NCBI GenBank assembly: GCA_913065005.1 | Contig: CAJYAJ010000005.1 | Location: 1 to 50,738 of the forward strand | DNA: 50,738 bases | Reading direction: 5' to 3' | From: an uncultured Verrucomicrobiota bacterium | Lineage (GTDB): Bacteria > Verrucomicrobiota > Kiritimatiellia > Kiritimatiellales > Pontiellaceae | Part shown: positions 1,348 through 29,737 of the stretch, piece after piece | Position numbering within the stretch: the stretch's first letter is position 1 | Layout: each line of letters begins with the position of its first letter | Made by a program: the position numbers and the translations under genes | The notes under the pieces: generated by a model | What the model was told of the DNA's origin: nothing | The model's database searches: none | The model's input: the letters and a program-made list of their open reading frames with translations, nothing else

Positions 1348-2709
<1,362 letters not shown>

Positions 2710-2732
2710 AAACTTCAATGAATCGAAAATAC

Positions 2733-2759
2733 AAAGGCGGCCCACAGCCGCCTTTTTTT
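2733..2759 (+). terminator. Intrinsic terminator after purB
   Basis: Nine-base stem AAAGGCGGC (2733-2741) and GCCGCCTTT (2747-2755) with a five-base loop and a trailing T run. It ends the rdgB-purB stretch. Confidence 0.9.
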
Positions 2760-2849
2760 GTGCCTACACCATAACTTGACTGATAGTCCATAGACTTATG
2801 ATTTACGCCTTCATGGGAGAATGCGTGGTTTCTTGATAAACTTTTTGAA

Positions 2850-3287
2850 ATGAGGCCACGCCAGAGGCAGGCGGTTATTGAGGGACTTCCTTGGGCTAAT
2901 GAGTTCGCAGGTGTTTCCGATTATATGCTGAAGAAGCGGATTGAGGATTGCCGTCTTAAATGTACAAAGGCTCGTATGAGTCATATATATCGTCGCCTAC
3001 ATCCCGATAAACCCTCATATACAATTACAGGAAGTGGTGGTGGAACTCATGTTTATCATTGGGAAGAGCACCGAGCACTGACTAATAGAGAGCGGGCACG
3101 CCTTCAAAGTTTTCCTGATTGGTTTGAATTTAAGGGTCCAAAAGAACAAGTTCGGAAACAAATTGGGATGGCTGTTCCTCCTGAGGGTGCGAAAAAAATA
3201 TTTGAGGCAATTCTTAAGACATTTGCAGGAATTGAATATGATTGGATTGAGTCAAATCACTTTAGATTTATATTTCGTGAGAAATAA
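2850..3287 (+). pseudogene. C5 cytosine DNA methyltransferase, C-terminal fragment
   Basis: 145 residues matching only the last third of a Dcm-type C5 cytosine methyltransferase: target-recognition end, then motif IX (RALTNRERARLQSFPDWFEF, about residues 70-89) and motif X (QIGMAVPP, about 103-110). The S-adenosylmethionine site (motif I), the catalytic PCQ (motif IV) and ENV (motif VI) are absent. The same frame stays open upstream only to a TGA at 2799-2801, with no fit to the missing domains. It should be inactive on its own. Together with the overlapping minus-strand frame it looks like the relic of a restriction-modification locus between purB and accB. A separately encoded N-terminal half elsewhere cannot be excluded. 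Confidence 0.8.
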
Positions 3288-3519
3288 TATATTGTAACTC
3301 ATTTATAGCCTCAGGTGAGAAGCGTAGGGATTGACTCTTTTTTCCTGTGATTTTTCTGATTTTCGATCCGTATGTATCTAGTTGCAATAATCTTTCGCCA
3401 TCTTCGTTTGTGATAATCGAATACGTACATTCAACCTCAGAGTGAGTAGAATTTTTTATAGTGATTTTTCTAATTTTATAAATGATGGATTTTGAGACAG
3501 GTAAATAAATGATTTGGTT
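3268..3519 (-). pseudogene. Small conserved-looking frame facing the methyltransferase fragment
   Basis: On the minus strand an open frame runs from after a TGA (complement of 3520-3522) to a TAA at 3268-3270 and overlaps the methyltransferase 3' end by 20 bases, tail to tail. Its last 70 or so codons read like real protein: VECTYSIITNEDGERLLQLD, then TYGSKIRKITGKKSQSLRF, then SPEAINELQYIISHEI. I recall short bacterial proteins of about 75-80 residues with the same LQLDTYGS...GKxSQS pattern, but could not search. No ATG, GTG or TTG lies in the frame upstream of the conserved part, so the start appears lost, or a rare start (ATT) is used. It is called a remnant for this reason. Confidence 0.55.
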
Positions 3520-3675
3520 TCAATGGAATTTAAATTGTGCAGAAGTTTTTTGTTAAAATGAGTGTGTGTTGTGATGTTGGGGGATGAATCTGGCGGGGAA
3601 AGGGCTGGGCAAGGTGGGGTTAAATGGTGTTTTATATTCTTTATTGTAATTTGATTCTTATTTAGGAGGACTGTG
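3520..3675 (+). other. Intergenic region upstream of accB
   Basis: A+T-rich stretch with a G-rich island (about 3585-3625) between the methyltransferase scar and accB. The ribosome-binding site AGGAGGA (3664-3670) of accB is at its end. A promoter for the accB operon is expected here, but I could not pick a convincing -35/-10 pair. An open frame of 99 codons on the minus strand (3456-3755) runs through it into accB and is judged spurious. Confidence 0.4.
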
Positions 3676-4134
3676 ATGGATATCAGCGAGATCAAACGGA
3701 TCGTGAAACTGATGGAAGAAAAAGGGCTTACTGAGTTTTCGATGAAGGATGCCAATGGGGAACTGCTGTTGAAACGGGGTGGCGGGGAACCACAGGTGGT
3801 TTATTCGGCTCCACCGGCGGTGGCTCCGGCTGCACCGGTTCCGGTGGCGGCTCCTGTTGAGGCGGCGGCTCCGGTGGCGGAGAAACCTTCTAATTTGATT
3901 GAGATCACGTCTCCGATTGTGGGGACGTTCTATCGGAAACCGGCGCCTGATCAGCCGGCGCATGTGAATGAGGGCGATTCGGTTACGACGGAGTCGGTGG
4001 TTTGCATTGTTGAGGCGATGAAGGTGATGAATGAGATCAATGCGGAGGTGTCGGGAACCATCAAGGAGGTGCTGGTTGAGGATGGGGATCCGGTACAGTT
4101 TGGTCAGCCGTTGTTTAAGGTGGATCCTAAGTAA
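3676..4134 (+). CDS. accB: Biotin carboxyl carrier protein of acetyl-CoA carboxylase
   Basis: 152 residues; carries biotin between the carboxylase and transferase subunits in the first step of fatty acid synthesis. The layout is typical: N-terminal helix DISEIKRIVKLMEEKG, an Ala/Pro-rich flexible linker (about residues 37-72), then the biotinyl domain with VEAMKVMNEI, where K116 is the biotinylated lysine. The ATG at 3676 is five bases after AGGAGGA; an in-frame GTG at 3673 is too close to that site. It is followed nine bases later by accC, the usual accBC pair. Confidence 0.96.
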   Translation: MDISEIKRIVKLMEEKGLTEFSMKDANGELLLKRGGGEPQVVYSAPPAVAPAAPVPVAAPVEAAAPVAEKPSNLIEITSPIVGTFYRKPAPDQPAHVNEGDSVTTESVVCIVEAMKVMNEINAEVSGTIKEVLVEDGDPVQFGQPLFKVDPK

Positions 4135-7360: not shown

Positions 7361-8266
7361 ATGGCGGGTAAGCAAAAGGGGTTAGGTCGTGGGCTGGATG
7401 CGTTGATTAAAGATGGCGCAACGAAGCGAGAAGAGGTAGAGGCTGGAAAGGCGGGGGGTGCGCTGCGGGTGGCAATTTCGCAGGTTGTTGCGAGTCCGTG
7501 GCAGCCGAGATCAATTTTTGATTCTGATGCGTTGGGTGAGTTGGTTGAGTCGGTTAAAGTGCATGGTATTTTGCAGCCTTTAATTGTGCGGGAAGTGAAT
7601 GATACATTCGAGCTGATTGCGGGGGAGCGGCGGTTGCGTGCGGCGGAGGCGGCTGGTTTGAAGAAGGTGCCTGTGATGGTGATTGAGGCGTCGGATGAGA
7701 AGGCGTTAGAGTTGGCCTTGATTGAGAATTTACAACGGGAAGATTTGAATCCGATTGAAGAGGCGGAAGGATATGCGTTGTTGCAGAAGCAGTTTGGATT
7801 AACGCAGGAGCAGGTGGCTGAACAGGTGGGTAAGGCGCGGGCGTCGGTGGCGAATGCGTTGCGTATGTTGGATTTATCGGATGTGATTCGTAAGCAGGTT
7901 TCTGATGGATTGCTGAGTGTGGGGCATGCGAAGGTGTTGATGGGGGCTTCTTCTTCGGTGGATCGGGAGCGGTTGGCTACGCAGGCGATTAAAGAGGGTT
8001 TAACGGTTCGTGCGTTAGAGCGGTTGGTGAAGAAGCTGGGTTTGCCGCCGAAAAAGCCACGGGCTGAGAGGAGTGATTTGCCGACCGATTATTTGAAAAG
8101 TTTGACGGATGATCTGCATCGTTTGTTTGGCACGCAGGTTCGTATTTCACCTTCTAAGACGTTGGCGAATGGGCGGCGTGTGAAGGGGTCTTTGGAAATC
8201 GATTATCATGATAATGATGAGTTGGACCGGTTGTTGCAGCTGATGGGATATGAGAGTGAGCTCTGA
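7361..8266 (+). CDS. parB: ParB/Spo0J chromosome partitioning protein
   Basis: 301 residues, typical for chromosomal ParB. Order: basic N-terminus KQKGLGRGLDALI, the CTP-binding/ParB nuclease-like domain with PWQPR, GILQPLIVR and the GERRLRAA motif, then LALIENLQREDLNPIEEAEG, and the helix-turn-helix (LTQEQVAEQVGKARASVANA) that binds parS. It acts as a CTP-dependent clamp that loads at parS and spreads. The start follows AGGAGGTAAAAG. No parA is adjacent in the window, which is unusual; parA may be elsewhere. A CACGTG core at about 7321-7327 does not match parS outside the centre. Confidence 0.94.
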   Translation: MAGKQKGLGRGLDALIKDGATKREEVEAGKAGGALRVAISQVVASPWQPRSIFDSDALGELVESVKVHGILQPLIVREVNDTFELIAGERRLRAAEAAGLKKVPVMVIEASDEKALELALIENLQREDLNPIEEAEGYALLQKQFGLTQEQVAEQVGKARASVANALRMLDLSDVIRKQVSDGLLSVGHAKVLMGASSSVDRERLATQAIKEGLTVRALERLVKKLGLPPKKPRAERSDLPTDYLKSLTDDLHRLFGTQVRISPSKTLANGRRVKGSLEIDYHDNDELDRLLQLMGYESEL

Positions 8267-9404
8267 GGTGGCAGAACAGGAGTATGAGGATCTCCAGGCG
8301 CTTGAATATGAGGGTGCGCAGCATCGGTTATTTGCGTGGCAGATAGGCTGTTTGTTTGGGTTGTTAATTGCGTTTTTGTGGAGTGGTTTTTCTGTGGTGC
8401 TTGCTGAGAATTTAACGATTCGGTGGGGGGCAGATCTGTGGTTCTGGGTGAATATGGCCTATACGGCTTTGGTGGTGTTGGGGATTTCCGTTTTTCTGTT
8501 TCCGTTTTCTTATTATGGGGGTTATGTGCTGGAGCATCACTATGGGTTGTCGAACCAGACGGTGGGTGATTGGAGTGGTGATTATCTAAAATCGGTGCTG
8601 ATGAATTTGGTGATTGCGAGTGTATTGGTGAGTGTGTTGTATGCGTTTTTGCGTTGGATTCCGGAGATCTGGTGGTGGGTGGGTACGGGATTCTATATCG
8701 CATTTTCGCTTTTGTTTTCGTTTTTGGCGCCGGTGGTAATTCTTCCTTTATTCAACCCGTTTGAGCCGTTGGAAGATGGGGCATTGGAGGAGCGGGTGCG
8801 TTCGGTGGTTGCTTCGGCGGGTATTACCCTTTCGGGGGTCTATTGTTGGGGGGTAGAGGAGAAGACCAATACGGCGAATGCGGCGTTTGTGGGAGTGGGA
8901 AAAACGAAGCGAATTATTTTGAGTGATACGTTGCTGAAGGCGTATTCGGATGAGGAGATTTTGGCGGTGGTGGCGCATGAGGCGGGGCATTGCCGCAATC
9001 GGGATATGATGCGCTTGATGGGTGTGCATGCGGGGTTTGCGTTGGCTGGATTTTATGTGGTGGATCTGTTTTTGCATGGGTTGATCCGTTGGGTGGGGCT
9101 GAGTTCGATTTCGGATATTGCGGGTGCGCCGCTGTTTTTCTTTGGGGTCATTCTTTTTTCGATGTGTATGATGCCGGTAGCGAATGGGTATTCTCGGCGT
9201 CGGGAGTTTGCGGCGGATGCGTATGCGGTTGAGGCGATGGGTTCAGCAGAGGCATTGGTTTCGGCGTTAGAAAAGTTGTCTAGACAAAATCTATCGGTGC
9301 GCGAGCCAAAGCGGTGGGTGGAGTGGTTTTTACATTCGCATCCTTCGCTTAAGCGGCGGGTGGAGCGTGCTCGTTTGCGGGCGGCTGAGCTTGCTTCTGG
9401 TTGA
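8250..9404 (+). CDS. Membrane zinc protease, M48 (Ste24-like) family
   Basis: 384 residues. Several membrane segments precede the zinc motif HEAGH (residues 243-247, in VVAHEAGHCRNRDM), with further membrane segments and the third ligand region in SRRREFAADAYAVE. This matches Ste24/CAAX prenyl protease 1 (M48A) rather than the shorter HtpX type. In bacteria such enzymes are thought to take part in membrane protein quality control; the substrate here is unknown. The ATG at 8250 overlaps the parB end by 17 bases; GTG codons at 8256 and 8268 are alternative starts. Confidence 0.85.
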   Translation: MRVSSEVAEQEYEDLQALEYEGAQHRLFAWQIGCLFGLLIAFLWSGFSVVLAENLTIRWGADLWFWVNMAYTALVVLGISVFLFPFSYYGGYVLEHHYGLSNQTVGDWSGDYLKSVLMNLVIASVLVSVLYAFLRWIPEIWWWVGTGFYIAFSLLFSFLAPVVILPLFNPFEPLEDGALEERVRSVVASAGITLSGVYCWGVEEKTNTANAAFVGVGKTKRIILSDTLLKAYSDEEILAVVAHEAGHCRNRDMMRLMGVHAGFALAGFYVVDLFLHGLIRWVGLSSISDIAGAPLFFFGVILFSMCMMPVANGYSRRREFAADAYAVEAMGSAEALVSALEKLSRQNLSVREPKRWVEWFLHSHPSLKRRVERARLRAAELASG

Positions 9405-9499
9405 AGCAGGTGCTGTTTTTTTCCTTTTTTGAGGTAGGTTTTAGGGGCATTCAATCGCTTTTGAATTGAGATGAGGATAGGTTTTTCGAGGAGGTTGCA
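9405..9499 (+). other. Intergenic region with a short inverted repeat
   Basis: Contains the inverted repeat ATTCAA/TTGAAT at about 9449-9466 and ends in GAGGAGG, the strong ribosome-binding site of the next gene. It probably carries the promoter of the small HTH-like gene and uvrA, but no clear -35/-10 pair was identified. Confidence 0.35.
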
Positions 9500-9760
9500 A
9501 TGGATGATACGAATAGTCGGGCGATGGGGCTTCAGCCGTTACATGAAATCATGGATGAGCGGGGTTGGAGTAATCATGATATCGTTCGGGCGGCCCCGCC
9601 GGGATTTATTACGCATAAGCAGGTTCAGAAAGCGCGTAAGGGGCGGTGGTTGACTGCGAATATGCAACGTAAAATTGAGCAGGCAGTGAATGCGTGTGCG
9701 GCTCCTGATTCATATACGTTGGGGGAGCTGTTTACCTATCGGGGCAAACGAAAGTTGTAG
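9500..9760 (+). CDS. Small HTH-like protein of unknown function, upstream of uvrA
   Basis: 86 residues, not recognised as a named family. The stretch LHEIMDERGWSNHDIVRAA followed by ITHKQVQKARKGRWLT and NMQRKIEQAVNAC resembles a Cro/XRE-like helix-turn-helix with a basic recognition end. The C-terminus TLGELFTYRGKRKL is basic. A very good ribosome-binding site (GAGGAGG) precedes the ATG. Its stop is seven bases before the uvrA start, so the two are almost certainly co-transcribed and may be translationally coupled. It could be a DNA-binding regulator or a ribosome/nucleoid-associated protein. Confidence 0.7.
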   Translation: MDDTNSRAMGLQPLHEIMDERGWSNHDIVRAAPPGFITHKQVQKARKGRWLTANMQRKIEQAVNACAAPDSYTLGELFTYRGKRKL

Positions 9761-9767
9761 GAGTCGT

Positions 9768-12584
9768 GTGGCAAGGCAGTGGATTCAGGTAACGGGTGCT
9801 CGTGAGCATAATTTAAAGAACGTGGATGTGAAGTTGCCGCGCAATGAGCTGACGGTGATTACTGGCTTGAGTGGTTCGGGAAAGTCGTCGTTGGCGTTTG
9901 ATACGATTTATGCGGAGGGGCAGCGAAAATATGTGGAGAGCCTTTCGGCTTATGCGCGGCAATTTTTGGGACAGATGCAGAAGCCGGATGTGGATGGTAT
10001 TGAGGGGCTGTCTCCGGCGGTTTCGATTGAGCAGCGAACGGCGGGATCGAACCCGCGATCGATTGTGGCGACGACGACGGAGATTTATGATTATCTGAGG
10101 TTGCTGTTTGCGAGTATTGGGAAAGCGCATTGTTATGCGTGCGGGAAACCGGTGACGAGTCAGAGCGCGGAGGAGATGGTTGAACAGTTGATGGCGTTGG
10201 ATTCGGGTCGTCGATTAATGATTCTTGCGCCGCTTGTTCGGGGGCGCAAGGGGGAACATGTAGAGGTGTTTGAACAGGCGCGGCGGCGTGGTTTTGTGCG
10301 TGCGCGTGTGGATGGTGATTTGGTTGAGTTGGAATCGGTTCCGAAGCTGGCGAAGACGCGGAAGCATTCGATTGAGGCGGTGGTGGATCGGTTGGTGATG
10401 GATGCGGAGGTGCGTTCGCGGTTGACGGATTCGGTGGAGTTGGCGTTGAGGGAGGGCCATGGCTTGATGGTGGCGTTGGTGGAGATGCCAGATGGGGCTT
10501 GGGAGGAGCATGCGTATTCGGAGCAGAATGCGTGTACGGATTGTGAGATTAGTTTTGATCCGTTTGAGGCTCGTCATTTTTCGTTTAATAGTCCGTATGG
10601 GGCGTGTACGACGTGTCATGGGTTGGGGACGCAGTTAATTTTTGATGAGAGTTTGATGGTGCCGGATCGATCGGTGGCTTGGACGAAGGCGATTCATCCG
10701 CTGCGGTATGGGGGCCGGCGGGTGGTGATTTATTATAAGAAGTTGTTGGAGGGGTTGTCGCAGGCATATGGAATTGATGCGAATGTGCCGTATGAGGCGT
10801 TGTCGGATGAATTTCGGGAGGTGTTGTTGCGGGGATCGGGTTCGGTGGAGATCGAATATTATATGCGCCGTCGGTTGCAAAGACGTCCGTTTGAGGGTGT
10901 GATTCCGATGCTAATGCGGCGGCTGGAGGATAATGAGAGTGAGGGGATGAGTCATTGGTTGCGGGACTATATGATTCGTCAGGCGTGTCCGGGTTGTGCG
11001 GGGGCTCGATTGCAGCCGGCGGTGTTGGCGTGTCGGGTTCAGGGGCGAAATATTCGGGAGATTATTGGGGATTCTGTATGGGATGCGGCGCACTTCTTTG
11101 AGGGGTTGAGGTTGTCGGATCAGGAGGAGTGGATTACGCGGGATATTTTGAAAGAGATCCGTTCGCGATTGGGTTTTATGGTGGATGTGGGTTTGGATTA
11201 TCTGACGTTGGATCGGGAGAGTGGTTCGTTGTCGGGTGGGGAGGCGCAGCGGATTCGGTTGGCTACGCAAATTGGTGCGGGGTTGGTGGGGGTTGTTTAT
11301 GTGTTGGATGAGCCGAGTATTGGGTTGCATCAGCGAGATAATGATCGATTGATTCAGACGTTGCGTGAGTTGCGTGATTTGGGCAATACAGTGATTGTGG
11401 TTGAGCATGATGAGCAGACGATTCGGACGGCGGATTATGTGATCGATATGGGGCCGTTGGCTGGCTTTGAGGGGGGCGAGGTTGTTTTTGCGGGTCCGAC
11501 GAAAAAATTGTTAGAGGCGGATACATTGACGGCGGCTTATTTGCGTGGAGATCGAGTGGTGGAGGTGCCGGCAAGGCGGAATCGTTCGAAGCGGGGTTGG
11601 TTGGAGTTGAAGGGGGCTACGGCGAATAATTTAAAGCGGGTGAATGCAAAGTTTCCCATCGGTTTGTTTACGTGTGTTACGGGGGTTTCTGGAAGTGGGA
11701 AGAGTACGCTTGTTGATCAAACGTTGAAGCGGATTTTGGGGCAGCATTTCAATGGGTCGAAGGATTTGCCGGGGGCGTATAAGGAGGTGCGGGGGTTGGA
11801 TCTGGCGGATAAGATGATTGTGATTGATCAGTCGCCGATTGGGCGAACTCCGCGGTCGAATCCGGCGACGTATACGGGTGCATTTACGGAGGTTCGGACG
11901 CTTTTTGCGTCGTTGCCGGCGTCAAAAATACGGGGCTATAAGCCGGGTCGCTATAGCTTTAATGTGAAGGGGGGGCGTTGTGAACGGTGTAAGGGCGATG
12001 GGATTCTAAAGATTGAGATGCATTTTTTACCGGATGTGTATGTGCCGTGTGAGCAGTGTCAGGAGAAGCGATATAATCGGGAAACGTTGGAAGTCACGTA
12101 TAAGGGATTAAATATTTCGGAAGTGCTTAGTTTGAGCATTCAGGAGGCGACGGATTATTTTGAGGCGGTTCCAAAAATTGCTCGAAAATTACAGATGTTA
12201 TGTGAGGTGGGTCTGGGGTACTTGAAGTTGGGTCAGCCGGCAACGACGTTGTCGGGTGGTGAGGCGCAGCGGGTGAAGTTGGCAAGTGAGTTGAGCAAGC
12301 GCTCAACGGGACGCACGATCTATATTCTTGATGAGCCGACGACGGGGTTGCATTTTGCGGATGTGCATAAACTGCTCGAGGTGCTGGAACGGTTGCGAGA
12401 TGAGGGAAATACGGTCATTGTGATTGAACATAATCTGGATATGATTAAGCGGGCTGACTATGTGGTGGATATGGGGCCGGGTGGCGGCATCAATGGGGGT
12501 CGTTTGGTGGCGAGTGGTACTCCTGAACAGGTGGCAGCTTGCGAGGCTTCTTATACGGGTCAGTATTTGAAAGAGTTACTTTAA
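9768..12584 (+). CDS. uvrA: Excinuclease ABC subunit A
   Basis: 938 residues, family length about 940. UvrA recognises bulky DNA damage and loads UvrB in nucleotide excision repair. Two ABC ATPase modules are visible: Walker A GLSGSGKSS near the N-terminus and GVSGSGKST in the second half, with LSGGEAQR signatures and LDEPSIGLH / LDEPTTGLH Walker B regions. Zinc-finger cysteine pairs are seen in CTDC...CTTC and CERC...CEQC. The GTG at 9768, four bases after AGGAG, gives MARQWIQVTGAREHNLKNVD, the canonical N-terminus; the longer frame from 9690 is rejected. Its TAA shares four bases with the convergent pdxB stop. Confidence 0.98.
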   Translation: MARQWIQVTGAREHNLKNVDVKLPRNELTVITGLSGSGKSSLAFDTIYAEGQRKYVESLSAYARQFLGQMQKPDVDGIEGLSPAVSIEQRTAGSNPRSIVATTTEIYDYLRLLFASIGKAHCYACGKPVTSQSAEEMVEQLMALDSGRRLMILAPLVRGRKGEHVEVFEQARRRGFVRARVDGDLVELESVPKLAKTRKHSIEAVVDRLVMDAEVRSRLTDSVELALREGHGLMVALVEMPDGAWEEHAYSEQNACTDCEISFDPFEARHFSFNSPYGACTTCHGLGTQLIFDESLMVPDRSVAWTKAIHPLRYGGRRVVIYYKKLLEGLSQAYGIDANVPYEALSDEFREVLLRGSGSVEIEYYMRRRLQRRPFEGVIPMLMRRLEDNESEGMSHWLRDYMIRQACPGCAGARLQPAVLACRVQGRNIREIIGDSVWDAAHFFEGLRLSDQEEWITRDILKEIRSRLGFMVDVGLDYLTLDRESGSLSGGEAQRIRLATQIGAGLVGVVYVLDEPSIGLHQRDNDRLIQTLRELRDLGNTVIVVEHDEQTIRTADYVIDMGPLAGFEGGEVVFAGPTKKLLEADTLTAAYLRGDRVVEVPARRNRSKRGWLELKGATANNLKRVNAKFPIGLFTCVTGVSGSGKSTLVDQTLKRILGQHFNGSKDLPGAYKEVRGLDLADKMIVIDQSPIGRTPRSNPATYTGAFTEVRTLFASLPASKIRGYKPGRYSFNVKGGRCERCKGDGILKIEMHFLPDVYVPCEQCQEKRYNRETLEVTYKGLNISEVLSLSIQEATDYFEAVPKIARKLQMLCEVGLGYLKLGQPATTLSGGEAQRVKLASELSKRSTGRTIYILDEPTTGLHFADVHKLLEVLERLRDEGNTVIVIEHNLDMIKRADYVVDMGPGGGINGGRLVASGTPEQVAACEASYTGQYLKELL

Positions 12585-13735
12585 AAGCAGATTCGGAAAC
12601 CTAGTTGACTTAGTTTGTGTTCGGTTTGTTCGGTTGCGTTATGTAGTCGAAGTTGAGTGGCGTTAAATTCTCGGCGAAGGGGATAGTTTTTGCGTAGTTG
12701 ATCGAAGTGAATGGCGCGTTCGATTTCATCGATGGGTAGGTTGGAGCGTAGTTGCTGATCGTCGTGCTCGATGGAATAGACGGTTTGTATGATATGGTGA
12801 AGTAGGGCTTCTTCGGTTTCAAAAGGATTTGCATCGATTTCGAGATAGGGAATGGGTGCTTCGGGTATATCGGCTTCATAATCCCAGCGGGGGGTGAGGT
12901 TGTATTTCTTGCAGAGGGCTTGGTAGCAAGCGAGGGTTCCGTTGAATTTTCCTTCAAAGGAGTGTCCGGCAATGTGGGGGGTGGCGAGGGAGGCTTGTTG
13001 GATGCAGTCGGGTCTGATTTGGGGTTCGGGATTCCAGACATCTAGTACGGATGCTGTTAGCATGTGTTGCTCTTGGGTATGAAGCCATGTGTCATAATCA
13101 CAGATGCCACCTCGGGCGGCGTTCATGAAGATGGCACAGGGCTTTAGGGATTCAAAAAAATCGTATGAGGCAAGATGAGCGGTTGGCCAACTGCCTTCTT
13201 TGGTGAGGGGGGTGTGTAGGGTTACAATATCGCATTCGGGCAAGAGGGATGGTAGAGGGGTTTGGGGGAAGGCAGGTTCTTGTGCGGCTCGTGGGGGGTC
13301 ATTTTGAAGGATATTTAGTTGGAGGGCGTGGGCTTTTTTGATGACCGCACGACCGACATTTCCGCAGCCAATGATGCCGATGGTTTTTTGGTTGAGGGAA
13401 AAGGATTTTTTTTGGGTGAGATGAAGGAGTGCGGCGGTTATGTATTCGGCGACGCTGTTGGCATTGCATCCGGGTGCTGCACTCCAGCTGATGTGGTTTT
13501 GATCGAGCCAATCGGTATCAAGATGATCGGTTCCGGCAGTAGCGGTTCCGACAAATTGAACGGGGGTTCCTTCTAGGAGTGCGGCATCGACTTTTGTTTT
13601 AGAGCGAATGATGAGGGCGTCGGTTTGTAGCAGGTGTTCGCGGGTTATGTCCCGATCGGGCCAAACGGTACATTCGCCAAGGGTTTGGAAGGCTGATTTT
13701 CCAGAAAGAACGGTTTCTGCACAAACAATATTCAT
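12581..13735 (-). CDS. pdxB: Erythronate-4-phosphate dehydrogenase
   Basis: 384 residues, matching PdxB (about 380). D-2-hydroxyacid dehydrogenase superfamily; oxidises 4-phosphoerythronate in the DXP-dependent pyridoxal phosphate pathway. Visible are the N-terminal catalytic-domain start MNIVCAETVLSGKSAF, FVGTATAGTDHLD, APGCNANSVAEYITAAL, the NAD-binding GIIGCGNVGRAV, the catalytic Arg region NAARGGICD and the catalytic His in TPHIAGHSFEGK. The C-terminal extra domain fits PdxB rather than SerA. It is convergent with uvrA with a four-base TTAA overlap at the stops. No other pdx gene is near. Confidence 0.9.
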   Translation of the reverse strand: MNIVCAETVLSGKSAFQTLGECTVWPDRDITREHLLQTDALIIRSKTKVDAALLEGTPVQFVGTATAGTDHLDTDWLDQNHISWSAAPGCNANSVAEYITAALLHLTQKKSFSLNQKTIGIIGCGNVGRAVIKKAHALQLNILQNDPPRAAQEPAFPQTPLPSLLPECDIVTLHTPLTKEGSWPTAHLASYDFFESLKPCAIFMNAARGGICDYDTWLHTQEQHMLTASVLDVWNPEPQIRPDCIQQASLATPHIAGHSFEGKFNGTLACYQALCKKYNLTPRWDYEADIPEAPIPYLEIDANPFETEEALLHHIIQTVYSIEHDDQQLRSNLPIDEIERAIHFDQLRKNYPLRREFNATQLRLHNATEQTEHKLSQLGFRICF

Positions 13736-13767
13736 GGGGGTTCGTTTCGTTGAAAGAGTCGGTTTTT

Positions 13768-14118
13768 TTAATTTTTTTGATTTCGTTTTTGATCAAGCCA
13801 CTTGCGAAATTCTTTATCTTTTTCAGCGGGATGCTGCTGAGAGTGTTGGTGGTGACGACCGTGTGTTGCATTCTTTTTCCATAAATGAGTGAACCAAAAT
13901 TTTGCGGTTGCAACTAATATAAGCAAGAAGGTGAGTAGAGCTGTGATAAGCGCACAAATGATTCCTTTTTGTTGATATATTCCGGTTCCATCTTCTTGAG
14001 AAAAGAAGGAGAGAGAAATGAGTGAACCGGAAACAAAAATAATAATGCAGACAAATGAGGCAACGGGATCGGGTCTCATTGTGAAGTGGGGTACTTTACC
14101 TTTAGGAGTCATACTCAT
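13768..14118 (-). CDS. Small membrane protein of unknown function
   Basis: 116 residues, not recognised. Two hydrophobic segments (about residues 18-40 and 52-75) are followed by a basic, His/Gln/Lys-rich tail (HGRHHQHSQQH region). It lies 32 bases upstream of pdxB on the same strand and could share its transcript. No clear ribosome-binding site precedes ATG 14118 or the alternative ATG at 14112, so the start is uncertain. Confidence 0.55.
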   Translation of the reverse strand: MSMTPKGKVPHFTMRPDPVASFVCIIIFVSGSLISLSFFSQEDGTGIYQQKGIICALITALLTFLLILVATAKFWFTHLWKKNATHGRHHQHSQQHPAEKDKEFRKWLDQKRNQKN

Positions 14119-14242
14119 ATTTCAGACTAGCATAGAAAAAATAAAACGAATTTGAAGCGGTAATTAGATTTTTATTTTTGGTCAGATTGATACCTTTCAC
14201 CTGCTTTGCACTATTTCGAGTGAAGGCGGAGGTCTATTTATA

Positions 14243-15025
14243 ATGGATTGGTTTAAAATAAGTTTACTGGCTGTTATTCAGGGGATTACGGAGTTTCTTC
14301 CTGTGAGTAGTTCGGGTCATTTAGTTATATTTAAGCATGTGGTTGGCTTGGACGTTGTTTCGGGTGCGACCTTGGAAATTGTATTACATGCGGGCACATT
14401 GGTTTCTATTTTAATTTTTTATCGCAAACGAATTGGGGCGTTGTTGCGTGGGTTTATTTCGGGAGAGCATGCGTCTCGGCGGTATGGCGGGTTGGTTGTT
14501 GTGGGGATTTTGCCTGCGATTTTGCTCGGTTTATTTGCGCGGCATGGCTTGGAACGGTTGTATGAGCGTCCGGTTTGGGCGGGACTTTTTCTACTGGTTA
14601 CGGGCGGATATCTGCTAGGGACAAGTGGTGTTAAAGCCACATCGGGTACGTTGCGACCTGTATCGGCTGTCTGGATTGGGTTGGCGCAGATGGTTGCTTT
14701 GTTGCCGGGTATTAGTCGGTCTGGATCAACGATCTGTACAGCGCGTCTATTTGGGATTGCACCGAAAAAGGCGGCTGAATTTTCTTTTCTGATGTCGATC
14801 CCTTTGTTGGCGGGGGTTGTGCTTTATGAGGGGGTTCGTTGGATTCGTTCGGATGCGATTGCTTGGGTTGATGGATGGGCGTTGGGATGGGGATTTATTT
14901 TATCGGCGGCGGTGGGCTATGGGGCACTTCATTGGTTGGTGTCTATGCTGGAGCGGGGTCGATTTTGGCATTTTGGCATCTATTGTTTGGTGGTGGGTTC
15001 GATCAGTCTTTGGTTATTACGTTAA
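14243..15025 (+). CDS. uppP: Undecaprenyl-diphosphatase
   Basis: 260 residues, BacA/UppP family polytopic membrane protein. Removes a phosphate from undecaprenyl diphosphate to recycle the lipid carrier of cell wall and LPS synthesis; some bacitracin resistance follows from high levels. The two signature motifs are present: QGITEFLPVSSSGH (about residues 12-25) and PGISRSGST (about 154-162). The start follows GGCGGAGG. It precedes the riboflavin operon but has its own transcript unless it reads into the riboswitch promoter region. Confidence 0.95.
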   Translation: MDWFKISLLAVIQGITEFLPVSSSGHLVIFKHVVGLDVVSGATLEIVLHAGTLVSILIFYRKRIGALLRGFISGEHASRRYGGLVVVGILPAILLGLFARHGLERLYERPVWAGLFLLVTGGYLLGTSGVKATSGTLRPVSAVWIGLAQMVALLPGISRSGSTICTARLFGIAPKKAAEFSFLMSIPLLAGVVLYEGVRWIRSDAIAWVDGWALGWGFILSAAVGYGALHWLVSMLERGRFWHFGIYCLVVGSISLWLLR

Positions 15026-15055
15026 TGTGATGGTAATGATTGAATTCAATTCTGC

Positions 15056-15084
15056 TTGCCCAGACTCTCGCATTTATCCATATT
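15056..15084 (+). promoter_or_regulatory. Probable promoter of the riboflavin operon
   Basis: TTGCCC (15056-15061), exactly 17 bases, then CATATT (15079-15084). Each box matches the sigma-70 consensus at four of six positions. The predicted transcription start, about seven bases after the -10 box, falls at about 15091, the first base of the FMN riboswitch. A perfect palindrome ATTGAATTCAAT (15039-15050) lies just upstream and could be an additional site. Confidence 0.6.
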
Positions 15085-15090
15085 TTGCGA

Positions 15091-15211
15091 ATCTTCAGGG
15101 CAGGGTGTAATTCCCGACCGGCGGTAAAAGTCCGCGAGCGAGGCGCTAAGAGCTGAGCATGATGCAGTGCAATTCTGCAGCCGACCGTATAGTCTGGATG
15201 GAAGAAGATAG
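15091..15211 (+). promoter_or_regulatory. FMN riboswitch (RFN element)
   Basis: The conserved aptamer blocks appear in order: ATCTTCAGGGCAGGGTG, then AATTCCCGACCGGCGGTAAA, GTCCGCGAGC, a variable stem with AATTCTGCAGCCGACCG, and TATAGTCTGGATGGAAGAAGAT. Binding of FMN represses riboflavin genes by early termination or by hiding the ribosome-binding site. It lies 80 bases before ribBA, the first gene of the operon. Confidence 0.95.
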
Positions 15212-15237
15212 TGCAAGGTTTGTGTTTCTCGATGGAA

Positions 15238-15270
15238 CACGCCCTGAAGGCTTGCTGTATTTAGGGTGTG
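15238..15270 (+). promoter_or_regulatory. Hairpin between the FMN aptamer and ribBA
   Basis: CACGCCCT (15238-15245) pairs with AGGGTGTG (15263-15270), eight pairs including one G-U. There is no T run after it, so it is not a normal intrinsic terminator. The ribosome-binding GGAG (15282-15285) lies outside the stem. It is a candidate part of the expression platform, more likely acting at translation than termination. Confidence 0.45.
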
Positions 15271-15290
15271 AAATGAGTTTTGGAGAAGAC

Positions 15291-16496
15291 ATGAATCAAT
15301 CGCCATTTGATCCAATAGATGAGGTGATCGAGGCCTTTGCAAACGGTGAAATCGTTGTGATGAGTGACGATGAGGATCGTGAAAATGAGGGCGACTTAAT
15401 CTGTGCGGCCGAGAAGGTTACCCCTGAAATCATCAATTTCATGATTACGCATGCGCGTGGTTTGGTGTGTGTGCCGATGGAGGAGGGGCGTTTACGGGAG
15501 TTGGGCCTTTCGCGGATGACGCCTGCGCATGCGTCGGATAAGTATCACACTGCTTTTATGGATTCGGTTGATGTGCGTGAGGGGACGACCACGGGCATCA
15601 GTGCTTCGGATCGGGCTGCGACGGTATTGGCTTTGATGGATGTGCAGAGTGGTGCTCAAGATTTTATTAAGCCGGGTCATTTATTTCCTTTAAAAGCGGT
15701 AAAGGGGGGCGTGCTGGAGCGGGCGGGCCATACAGAAGGAACGGTTGATTTGGCGCGTATTTGCGGATTAAAGCCGGCGGGTGTGATTTGTGAAATCCTG
15801 AAGGAGGATGGCGCGATGATGCGGTTAGAAGATTTGCGATCATTTTCGAATGAACATGGTTTAAAAATGACGTCGGTGGCGGAGATTGTGAAGTATCGTC
15901 ATCGTTATGAAAAACTAATTTCGTTGGAGCGGGAGATTCAATTGCCGACACAGGCGGGTGCTTTTCGGTTGAGGTTGTATAGTTCGAAGGCGGATCAGAA
16001 AGATCATTTGGCGTTGGTGTGCGGTGAGTCGGATGGAAAGAAACTTCCGTTGGTTCGGGTGCATAGCGAATGCATGACGGGGGATATTTTCCATTCCATG
16101 CGTTGCGATTGCGGATCGCAATTAGAGGCATCCATGCAGGAAATCCAGGCGTATGGATATGGGGCGGTGGTCTATGCTCGACAGGAGGGTCGGGGTATCG
16201 GATTGGCGAAGAAGCTTCATGCGTATGAATTACAGGAGCAGGGGTTGGATACGGTTGAAGCGAATCATGAGTTGGGGTTTGATGCAGATGAGCGGGATTA
16301 TGGTATTTCAGCGCAAATTTTGCGGGATCTCAAGATGGAGCGGGTGAAGTTGTTAACGAATAATCCTGCTAAAATTTTGGGGTTAGAGGTGTATGGTATT
16401 GAGGTGGATGAGCGGGTTTCTTTGATCTTGCCTCCGTCTGAGTATAACGGGTTTTATATGGCGACCAAGCGCGATAAAATGGGACATATCATTTAA
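15291..16496 (+). CDS. ribBA: Bifunctional DHBP synthase / GTP cyclohydrolase II
   Basis: 401 residues. The N-terminal RibB half makes 3,4-dihydroxy-2-butanone 4-phosphate from ribulose 5-phosphate: DDEDRENEGDLI acidic loop, HARGLVCVPM and HTEGTVDLARICGL. The C-terminal RibA half opens GTP: zinc cysteines in HSECMTGDIFHSMRCDCGSQ, then ARQEGRGIGLAKK and LLTNNPAK. Both active sites look intact. ATG 15291 is five bases after GGAG; longer in-frame starts at 15159 and 15273 would run back into the riboswitch. First gene of an FMN-controlled operon with ribH, nusB, ribD and ribE. Confidence 0.96.
   Translation: MNQSPFDPIDEVIEAFANGEIVVMSDDEDRENEGDLICAAEKVTPEIINFMITHARGLVCVPMEEGRLRELGLSRMTPAHASDKYHTAFMDSVDVREGTTTGISASDRAATVLALMDVQSGAQDFIKPGHLFPLKAVKGGVLERAGHTEGTVDLARICGLKPAGVICEILKEDGAMMRLEDLRSFSNEHGLKMTSVAEIVKYRHRYEKLISLEREIQLPTQAGAFRLRLYSSKADQKDHLALVCGESDGKKLPLVRVHSECMTGDIFHSMRCDCGSQLEASMQEIQAYGYGAVVYARQEGRGIGLAKKLHAYELQEQGLDTVEANHELGFDADERDYGISAQILRDLKMERVKLLTNNPAKILGLEVYGIEVDERVSLILPPSEYNGFYMATKRDKMGHII

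Positions 16497-29661: not shown

Positions 29662-29737
<76 letters not shown>

What the first reader, a model, noticed from the sequence alone, without database searches (positions are those of the whole stretch)
2850..3519. Restriction-modification scar with an overlooked, tail-overlapping small frame
The plus strand keeps only motifs IX-X of a C5 cytosine methyltransferase. On the minus strand a frame with protein-like sequence (LLQLDTYGS, GKKSQSLRF) ends inside it, overlapping 20 bases, but has no standard start codon. Both appear to be parts of one invading defence locus that has decayed from both sides between purB and accB. The small frame may mark a recurring partner of such methyltransferases.
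Basis: partly seen in the sequence, partly recalled or inferred. Interest (0 to 1): 0.55.

Follow-up and report, generated by a model that had tools for sequence, protein, structure and literature searches.

The report
Restriction-system remnant with unnamed small partner
Between two housekeeping genes lies the broken stub of a foreign DNA-methylating enzyme next to a small, start-less gene; the small gene belongs to an unnamed protein family that repeatedly sits beside bacterial restriction (anti-virus) systems.

Summary
The + strand holds the C-terminal part of a C5 cytosine methyltransferase. Homology starts at 2802, before the ATG at 2850. The minus frame 3268-3519 overlaps its tail by 20 bases and has AAA where the family starts with ATG. 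The stretch is absent from the closest relative and looks like the remnant of a horizontally acquired restriction-modification (R-M) island. The minus frame belongs to a real family (about 77-85 aa, under purifying selection, no matching model in Pfam, NCBIfam, PADLOC or PHROGs) found across phyla. A C5 methyltransferase lies in 17 of 38 fetched loci against 0 of 40 control stretches, and in 3 of 6 held-out members. Partners differ: Mza/paraMORC operons, FokI-type enzymes, PLD or SNF2 helicases, GmrSD. So the 'recurring partner' guess holds for R-M systems broadly, but 9 of 38 loci show none of my markers, some lying beside housekeeping genes. No intact purB-accB version and no intact tail-to-tail pair was found. 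Fold and function stay open: a PC4/PUR-like nucleic-acid-binding reading has weak support from one model and none from a second. The window copy is probably dead.

The parts
1363..2709 (+). purB (left flank, intact)
   Evidence: ORF; 94% identical copy in closest relative G022
2733..2755 (+). terminator-like hairpin after purB, probably native
   Evidence: relative L038 also has a hairpin plus T run after purB (read)
2710..3555 (.). lineage-specific stretch with no nucleotide match in closest relative G022, which has about 261 bp of unrelated sequence here
2802..3287 (+). C-terminal remnant of a C5 cytosine methyltransferase (about residues 238-387 of a 466-aa relative, plus tail); N-terminal catalytic half absent
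3268..3519 (-). open frame of the small R-M-associated protein; conserved part runs from about codon 12 (3486) to the stop
3487..3492 (-). columns where the family has ATG-Ala; here AAA TCC (start codon lost)
3268..3287 (.). 20-base tail-to-tail overlap of the two frames
3556..3672 (.). native accB leader; nucleotide homology to relative G022 resumes here (88% identity)
3673..4134 (+). accB (right flank, intact)

Best explanation
The interval holds what is left of a horizontally acquired restriction-modification island inserted between purB and accB in this lineage only. Two pieces remain: the last third of a C5 cytosine methyltransferase, and a nearly whole small gene that lost its start codon and ribosome-binding site. 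Both are cut on their outer sides and meet tail to tail. The methyltransferase stub cannot methylate, because the SAM-binding and catalytic half is gone. The small frame is probably not translated. In intact loci the small protein is an accessory of several kinds of R-M or defence operon, often co-directional with the next defence gene at spacings of about 15-90 bases, so it is likely made together with them. My mechanism for the family (inferred, not shown, about 0.35) is that it binds DNA or RNA, probably as a PC4/PUR-like beta-sheet dimer, and either helps the ATPase, helicase and nuclease partners engage DNA or controls their expression. In most of the Mza operons examined it stands just before the GHKL ATPase gene.
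For: Insert: about 0.97 kb between purB and accB here against about 0.38 kb in the closest relative (purB 94% identical), without either piece; two other relatives with both flanks on the locus have 0.29 and 0.34 kb (L053 partly N). Base composition: small frame 31% GC, MTase part 42%, purB 51%, accB 55%. Family reality: invariant Q, T, Y, Q, L columns in 28 and 33 aligned members; dN/dS 0.02, 0.09 and 0.15 in 3 of 4 close pairs tried, the fourth saturated. R-M association: C5 MTase 17 of 38 loci vs 0 of 40 control stretches from the same genomes (Fisher p 5e-7; 0 of 31 and p 7e-6 with full-length controls only), Vsr 10 vs 0, Mza core (Z1) 8 vs 0, any marker 29 vs 0. Held-out members not used to find the association: MTase in 3 of 6 (L112, L113, L114), and L115 has an NgoFVII-type PLD nuclease. 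Counted by 70%-identity clusters, 9 of 17 have an MTase locus. PADLOC names MzaB, C, D, E in L019 directly downstream of the small gene, with no model for the small protein itself.
Against: No intact copy of this island was found in any relative, so 'one locus' is inferred. The closest MTases (FokI-type loci L006 and L009; G009 Mza) and the closest small proteins (L004, L005) lie in different system types, so the two pieces could have arrived separately. No homologue of any of 20 partner proteins is left in the 50.7-kb window. The marker proteins and the MTase profile were partly built from the test loci (7 of its 9 sequences), which favours the test set; the held-out six are free of this for MTase. 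Many loci are related (14 actinobacterial members form one cluster). 9 of 38 loci have no marker, and several sit by chlL-chlN, carA-carB, ureC or a biotin-dependent carboxylase gene. Fold evidence is weak and did not repeat with a second model.
Confidence: 0.72

Rival explanations
1. Two unrelated arrivals: the MTase stub and the small gene came in at different times into an insertion-prone interval and happen to meet tail to tail.
For: The nearest relatives of the two pieces lie in different system types. Another species of the genus (G023, L072) has an unrelated intact C5 MTase-Vsr pair directly after purB, so the site has taken R-M genes more than once. The closest relative has unrelated AT-rich sequence there.
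Against: The two families co-occur far above background, both are cut on outer sides only, and they overlap by 20 bases.
Confidence: 0.2
2. The small protein is an R-M control or regulatory factor (an operon-first transcription regulator, like a C protein or the sigma factor MzaA) rather than a subunit of the enzyme.
For: In L003, L019, L020, L026, L028 and L029 it immediately precedes the GHKL gene. The literature places a sigma factor MzaA in only a few such systems (PMC9523054). An Xre HTH gene precedes it in L003, L019 and L020.
Against: In L006 it lies between a GmrSD protein gene and a small HTH gene, in L009 after the MTase, and in L013 between Vsr and an AlbA_2 protein gene, so it is not always first. 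The separate HTH genes already fit the regulator role.
Confidence: 0.25
3. The small family is a passenger that moves between operons and has no function in restriction, tolerating many neighbourhoods.
For: One copy in each of 29 of 29 genomes searched, very different neighbourhoods including carA-small-carB and chlN-small, and rare, patchy occurrence (1 of 387 own phylum, 1 of 297 phylum of G415, 9 of 200 family of G426, 4 of 341 class of G417).
Against: Strong purifying selection, conserved place in Mza operons across phyla, and enrichment with R-M genes.
Confidence: 0.15
4. The small frame is a translated, functional orphan gene in this organism, starting at a rare codon such as ATC or ATT at 3486-3481.
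For: 83 codons open in 31% GC DNA, and all family columns conserved at 90% or more are kept except M, A and one Q to R.
Against: No ATG, GTG or TTG before the core, no Shine-Dalgarno-like run, and the partner MTase is broken. A young insertion explains an open frame as well.
Confidence: 0.08

Closest known systems
Mza (mzaABCDE) / paraMORC restriction systems (Iyer et al. 2008, PMC2292703; Nat Commun 2022, PMC9523054)
   Same: 8 of 38 small-gene loci hold the GHKL ATPase and Z1 helicase core, most with MzaD and AIPR genes and a C5 MTase.
   Different: The small protein has no PADLOC model and is not named in the passages I read. PMC9523054 states that its analysis leaves out small ORFs. The window keeps no Mza gene. 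The G009 Mza operon in the same genus lacks the small gene.
Type IIS R-M with a FokI-type cleavage domain (PF09254)
   Same: L006 and L009 carry FokI-domain enzymes, C5 MTases 74-75% identical to the window's stub, and the small gene.
   Different: No nuclease piece remains in the window, and gene order differs.
HaeIII-named C5 methyltransferases on Geobacillus plasmids
   Same: 75-76% identity over 103 residues of the stub; one record bears the name haeIIIM.
   Different: The window copy lacks the N-terminal half. The plasmid collection gave only two small-gene records, neither among the 15 MTase records listed.
PC4-like / Pur-alpha nucleic-acid-binding proteins, including YdbC-type bacterial PC4 and the nickase AcrIIA22 (PMC8545432)
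   Same: First model has strands followed by a C-terminal helix. Its VIA list holds Pur-alpha (Z 4.6, 2.5 A, 50 aligned; Z 4.3, 3.7 A, 57), PC4 (Z 3.9, 3.9 A, 52) and a bacterial PC4 homologue (Z 3.6, 4.0 A, 54), mixed with COMM domains. Profile alignment with 21 clostridial PC4 proteins scored above all 200 column shuffles in local mode.
   Different: hhalign probability only 3-4%, no Pfam PC4 hit, and a second model (L006) gave no such match.

Membership tests
C5 cytosine DNA methyltransferase (PF00145) | C-terminal conserved block of the family | tested here: met
   profile 228-324 of 324, E 8.5e-18
C5 cytosine DNA methyltransferase (PF00145) | complete enzyme with N-terminal SAM-binding and catalytic motifs | tested here: not met
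   no homology before 2802; residues 1-237 of the 466-aa relative have no credible counterpart in 2600-3700
Small R-M-associated family (defined here) | conserved core with invariant Q, T, Y, Q, L and near-invariant V, G, R, K, S | tested here: met
   all kept in the window copy
Small R-M-associated family (defined here) | starts with Met-Ala after a ribosome-binding site | tested here: not met
   AAA TCC at the Met-Ala columns, no Shine-Dalgarno-like run
Mza system | MzaB-E genes beside the element | tested here: not met
   no tblastn hit of Mza proteins in the window at E 0.01; L029 as positive control gave hits
PC4/PUR-like fold | beta-sheet plus C-terminal helix matching PC4/PUR structures | tested here: inconclusive
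   weak matches with the window model, none with the L006 model
PC4/PUR-like fold | sequence homology to PC4 (PF02229) | tested here: inconclusive
   no PC4 hit in 29 members; hhalign local score 17.3 vs 200 shuffles, none higher, but probability 3-4% and the global mode not separated, 42 of 200 shuffles at or above
PC4/PUR-like fold | binds single-stranded nucleic acid | not testable with these tools
   needs a binding assay

The most novel reading that the evidence does not exclude
The small frame marks an unnamed, widely scattered protein family that acts as a shared nucleic-acid-binding part in several otherwise unrelated restriction systems (Mza/paraMORC, FokI-type, PLD- or SNF2-helicase, GmrSD). 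It would be a common plug-in that defence models have overlooked because of its size.
Probability: 0.3. Interest if true: 0.68.

Novelty: new variant of a known kind. Interest (0 to 1): 0.48.

Why it matters
The remnant itself is ordinary: R-M islands come and go. The family behind the small frame is what could matter. If a small protein is needed by, or regulates, several kinds of restriction system, then defence-system models and reconstitution experiments that leave it out are incomplete. Mza-type systems are recent and poorly understood in the papers I read, so a conserved extra gene just before the ATPase is a direct, testable lead.

Tried and rejected
Chance open frame: rejected (homologues; selection). 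Housekeeping gene of this lineage: rejected (only the own copy among 58 relatives, 288 phylum genomes and 387). Viral or phage gene: three viral-contig scans with the small protein or its alignments gave no relative, nor did two phage-collection searches. Known family: nothing credible in Pfam, NCBIfam, PADLOC or PHROGs. Solved structures by sequence: only short chance matches to proteasome chains and one other protein. Mobile-element signature: no flanking direct repeats found. DUF3276 (bacterial PUR-like) as a comparison set: none of 145 phylum genomes, so no profile comparison with it. The viral structure library gave no match with E <= 0.001.

Fold: I guessed PC4 from the strand-strand-helix pattern before the fold search, so the first search was not blind. 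The second model did not repeat it, and I keep the fold as inconclusive. The VIA lists cover only Foldseek's own top chains.

Not in print, as far as searched: (open-licence full texts only). I saw no description of the small protein in PMC2292703 (part 2 of 4 of the text and passages), PMC8011034 (listing abstract and passages), PMC9523054 (section 11 and passages), PMC5379612 (passages) or PMC8545432 (passages). The original mza paper was not read; its gene names come from PADLOC and PMC9523054. Figures and supplements were not seen.

A4 also left out L116. In one search, 4 close pairs were tried and one was saturated. In one search only 15 of 33 records were listed. In one search, 9 of 40 controls were shorter than 19 kb; the test was repeated on the 31 full ones. 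L010 could not be searched.

Full report
What is there. Between purB (ends 2709) and accB (starts 3673) the window holds two gene pieces. On the + strand, frame 2802-3287 is the C-terminal part of a C5 cytosine methyltransferase: Pfam PF00145 positions 228-324 of 324, E 8.5e-18, with many PADLOC MTase_II models. A 466-aa relative in the same genus aligns from its residue 238 to 387, starting exactly after the stop that opens the frame, at 64% identity. Intact C5 MTases in L006 and L009 are 75% and 74% identical over the last 99-104 residues. On the - strand, frame 3268-3519 is open for 83 codons and overlaps the MTase tail by 20 bases.

The stretch is foreign. In the closest relative (G022, purB 94% identical) purB and accB are about 0.38 kb apart without either piece. 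Nucleotide homology stops at the end of purB and resumes at 3556. The purB terminator at 2733-2755 is probably native, since another relative also has a hairpin there (sequence printed). The small frame is 31% GC and the MTase part 42%, against 51% for purB and 55% for accB. The site seems prone to such events: G023 has an unrelated intact C5 MTase and Vsr directly after purB.

The small frame is a real family. tblastn found two distant homologues in chromosome-sized 'plasmid' records, and one scan of 84,980 species genomes gave 30 loci from 36 pattern matches, in Acidobacteriota, Desulfobacterota, Bacillota, Cyanobacteria, Alphaproteobacteria and Actinomycetota (record titles; group names recalled). 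The proteins are about 77-85 aa. Q, T, Y, Q and L are invariant, and V, G, R, K and S nearly so. Close pairs show purifying selection (dN/dS 0.02, 0.09, 0.15; one more pair saturated). No curated library has a matching model. It is rare: 1 of 387 genomes in the own phylum, 1 of 297 in the phylum of G415, 9 of 200 in the family of G426, 4 of 341 in the class of G417, each count including the query genome. Each of 29 genomes holding it has one copy.

The window copy is broken at its start. The family's Met-Ala columns read AAA TCC and no ribosome-binding run precedes them, while L006, L009 and L029 have both. Everything from about codon 12 on is conserved. L005, one of the two closest relatives, is broken too (an internal stop).

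Neighbours. I tested 38 loci (30, 2, 6 held-out) against 40 control stretches from the same genomes (671 kb of test DNA, 645 kb of control). C5 MTase: 17 of 38 vs 0 of 40; Vsr 10 vs 0; Mza core 8 vs 0; GHKL ATPase 12 vs 0; PLD or SNF2 helicase 8 vs 0; GmrSD/DUF262 4 vs 0; DUF6551 7 vs 0; FokI 2 vs 0 (domain names). Of the six held-out members, three have an MTase. L115 has an NgoFVII-type PLD nuclease, L116 is joined to part of an AspBHI-type domain, L114 also has an HNH protein, and L111 has only DUF6551. Nine loci show none of the markers (L005, L007, L008, L010, L015, L017, L018, L023, L116; L116 has the AspBHI piece, which was not a marker). Some of these sit by housekeeping genes: chlL-chlN in L007 and L010, carA-carB in L018, ureC in L015, a biotin-dependent carboxylase in L008. 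The partner claim is therefore statistical, not universal.

Layouts. In Mza-type operons L003, L019, L020, L026, L028 and L029 the small gene stands 15-33 bases before the GHKL gene. In L006 it lies between a GmrSD gene and a small HTH gene that precedes the MTase and the FokI-type enzyme. In L031 and L033 it directly precedes the MTase. In L004, among the closest relatives, it precedes a large GHKL protein and a helicase, with the MTase convergent beyond. No locus shows the window's overlapping tail-to-tail layout, so an internal deletion in an L004-like island, a natural overlap in an unseen island, and two arrivals all remain possible.

Fold and function. The window model has mean pLDDT 83 and a strand-strand-strand-helix pattern. 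Its structural neighbours mix Pur-alpha, COMM and PC4 proteins at Z 3.4-4.6, none with strong statistics. A model of the intact L006 member has pLDDT 86 but finds none of these. A profile comparison with 21 clostridial PC4 proteins aligns the last strand and helix; its score beat all 200 shuffles in local mode but not in global mode, at 3-4% probability. I keep nucleic-acid binding as the most likely role because of these hints and the company it keeps, at about 0.35.

Verdict. The island itself is ordinary and probably dead. The unnamed small family beside several kinds of restriction system is the part worth following.

Noticed in passing
L072 (G023) 301-1996: An unrelated intact C5 methyltransferase and Vsr gene lie directly after purB in another species of the genus: a second R-M arrival at the same place.
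   Followed up: partly
L116 9246-9926: The small domain is joined in frame to a truncated AspBHI-type restriction N-terminal domain (profile 13-82 of 185); it may be a deletion chimera or a true fusion.
   Followed up: partly
L007, L010 (cyanobacteria), L018, L015, L008: Solitary small-family genes beside chlL-chlN, between carA and carB, before ureC, and after a biotin-dependent carboxylase gene; no R-M marker nearby.
   Followed up: partly
L012, L014, L022, L025, L032, L111, L113: A DUF6551 protein of about 269 aa recurs near the small gene in Actinomycetota (7 of 38 loci).
   Followed up: no
L069 (G009) 7711-16318: A full Mza-like operon in the same genus with an MTase 64% identical to the window's stub but without the small gene.
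   Followed up: partly
L003, L019, L020: Nearly identical Mza islands (over 96% protein identity for the partner proteins compared) in records named Acetoanaerobium, Clostridium and Desulfobulbaceae: recent transfer or misbinning.
   Followed up: no
window 15087-15213: FMN riboswitch; also a partial 23S rRNA at 1-352, 5S at 507-621 and a tRNA at 29665-29737.
   Followed up: no
L035 (G022), between purB and accB: About 261 bp of unrelated AT-rich sequence with a short protein-like stretch in place of the island; possibly another decayed insert.
   Followed up: no
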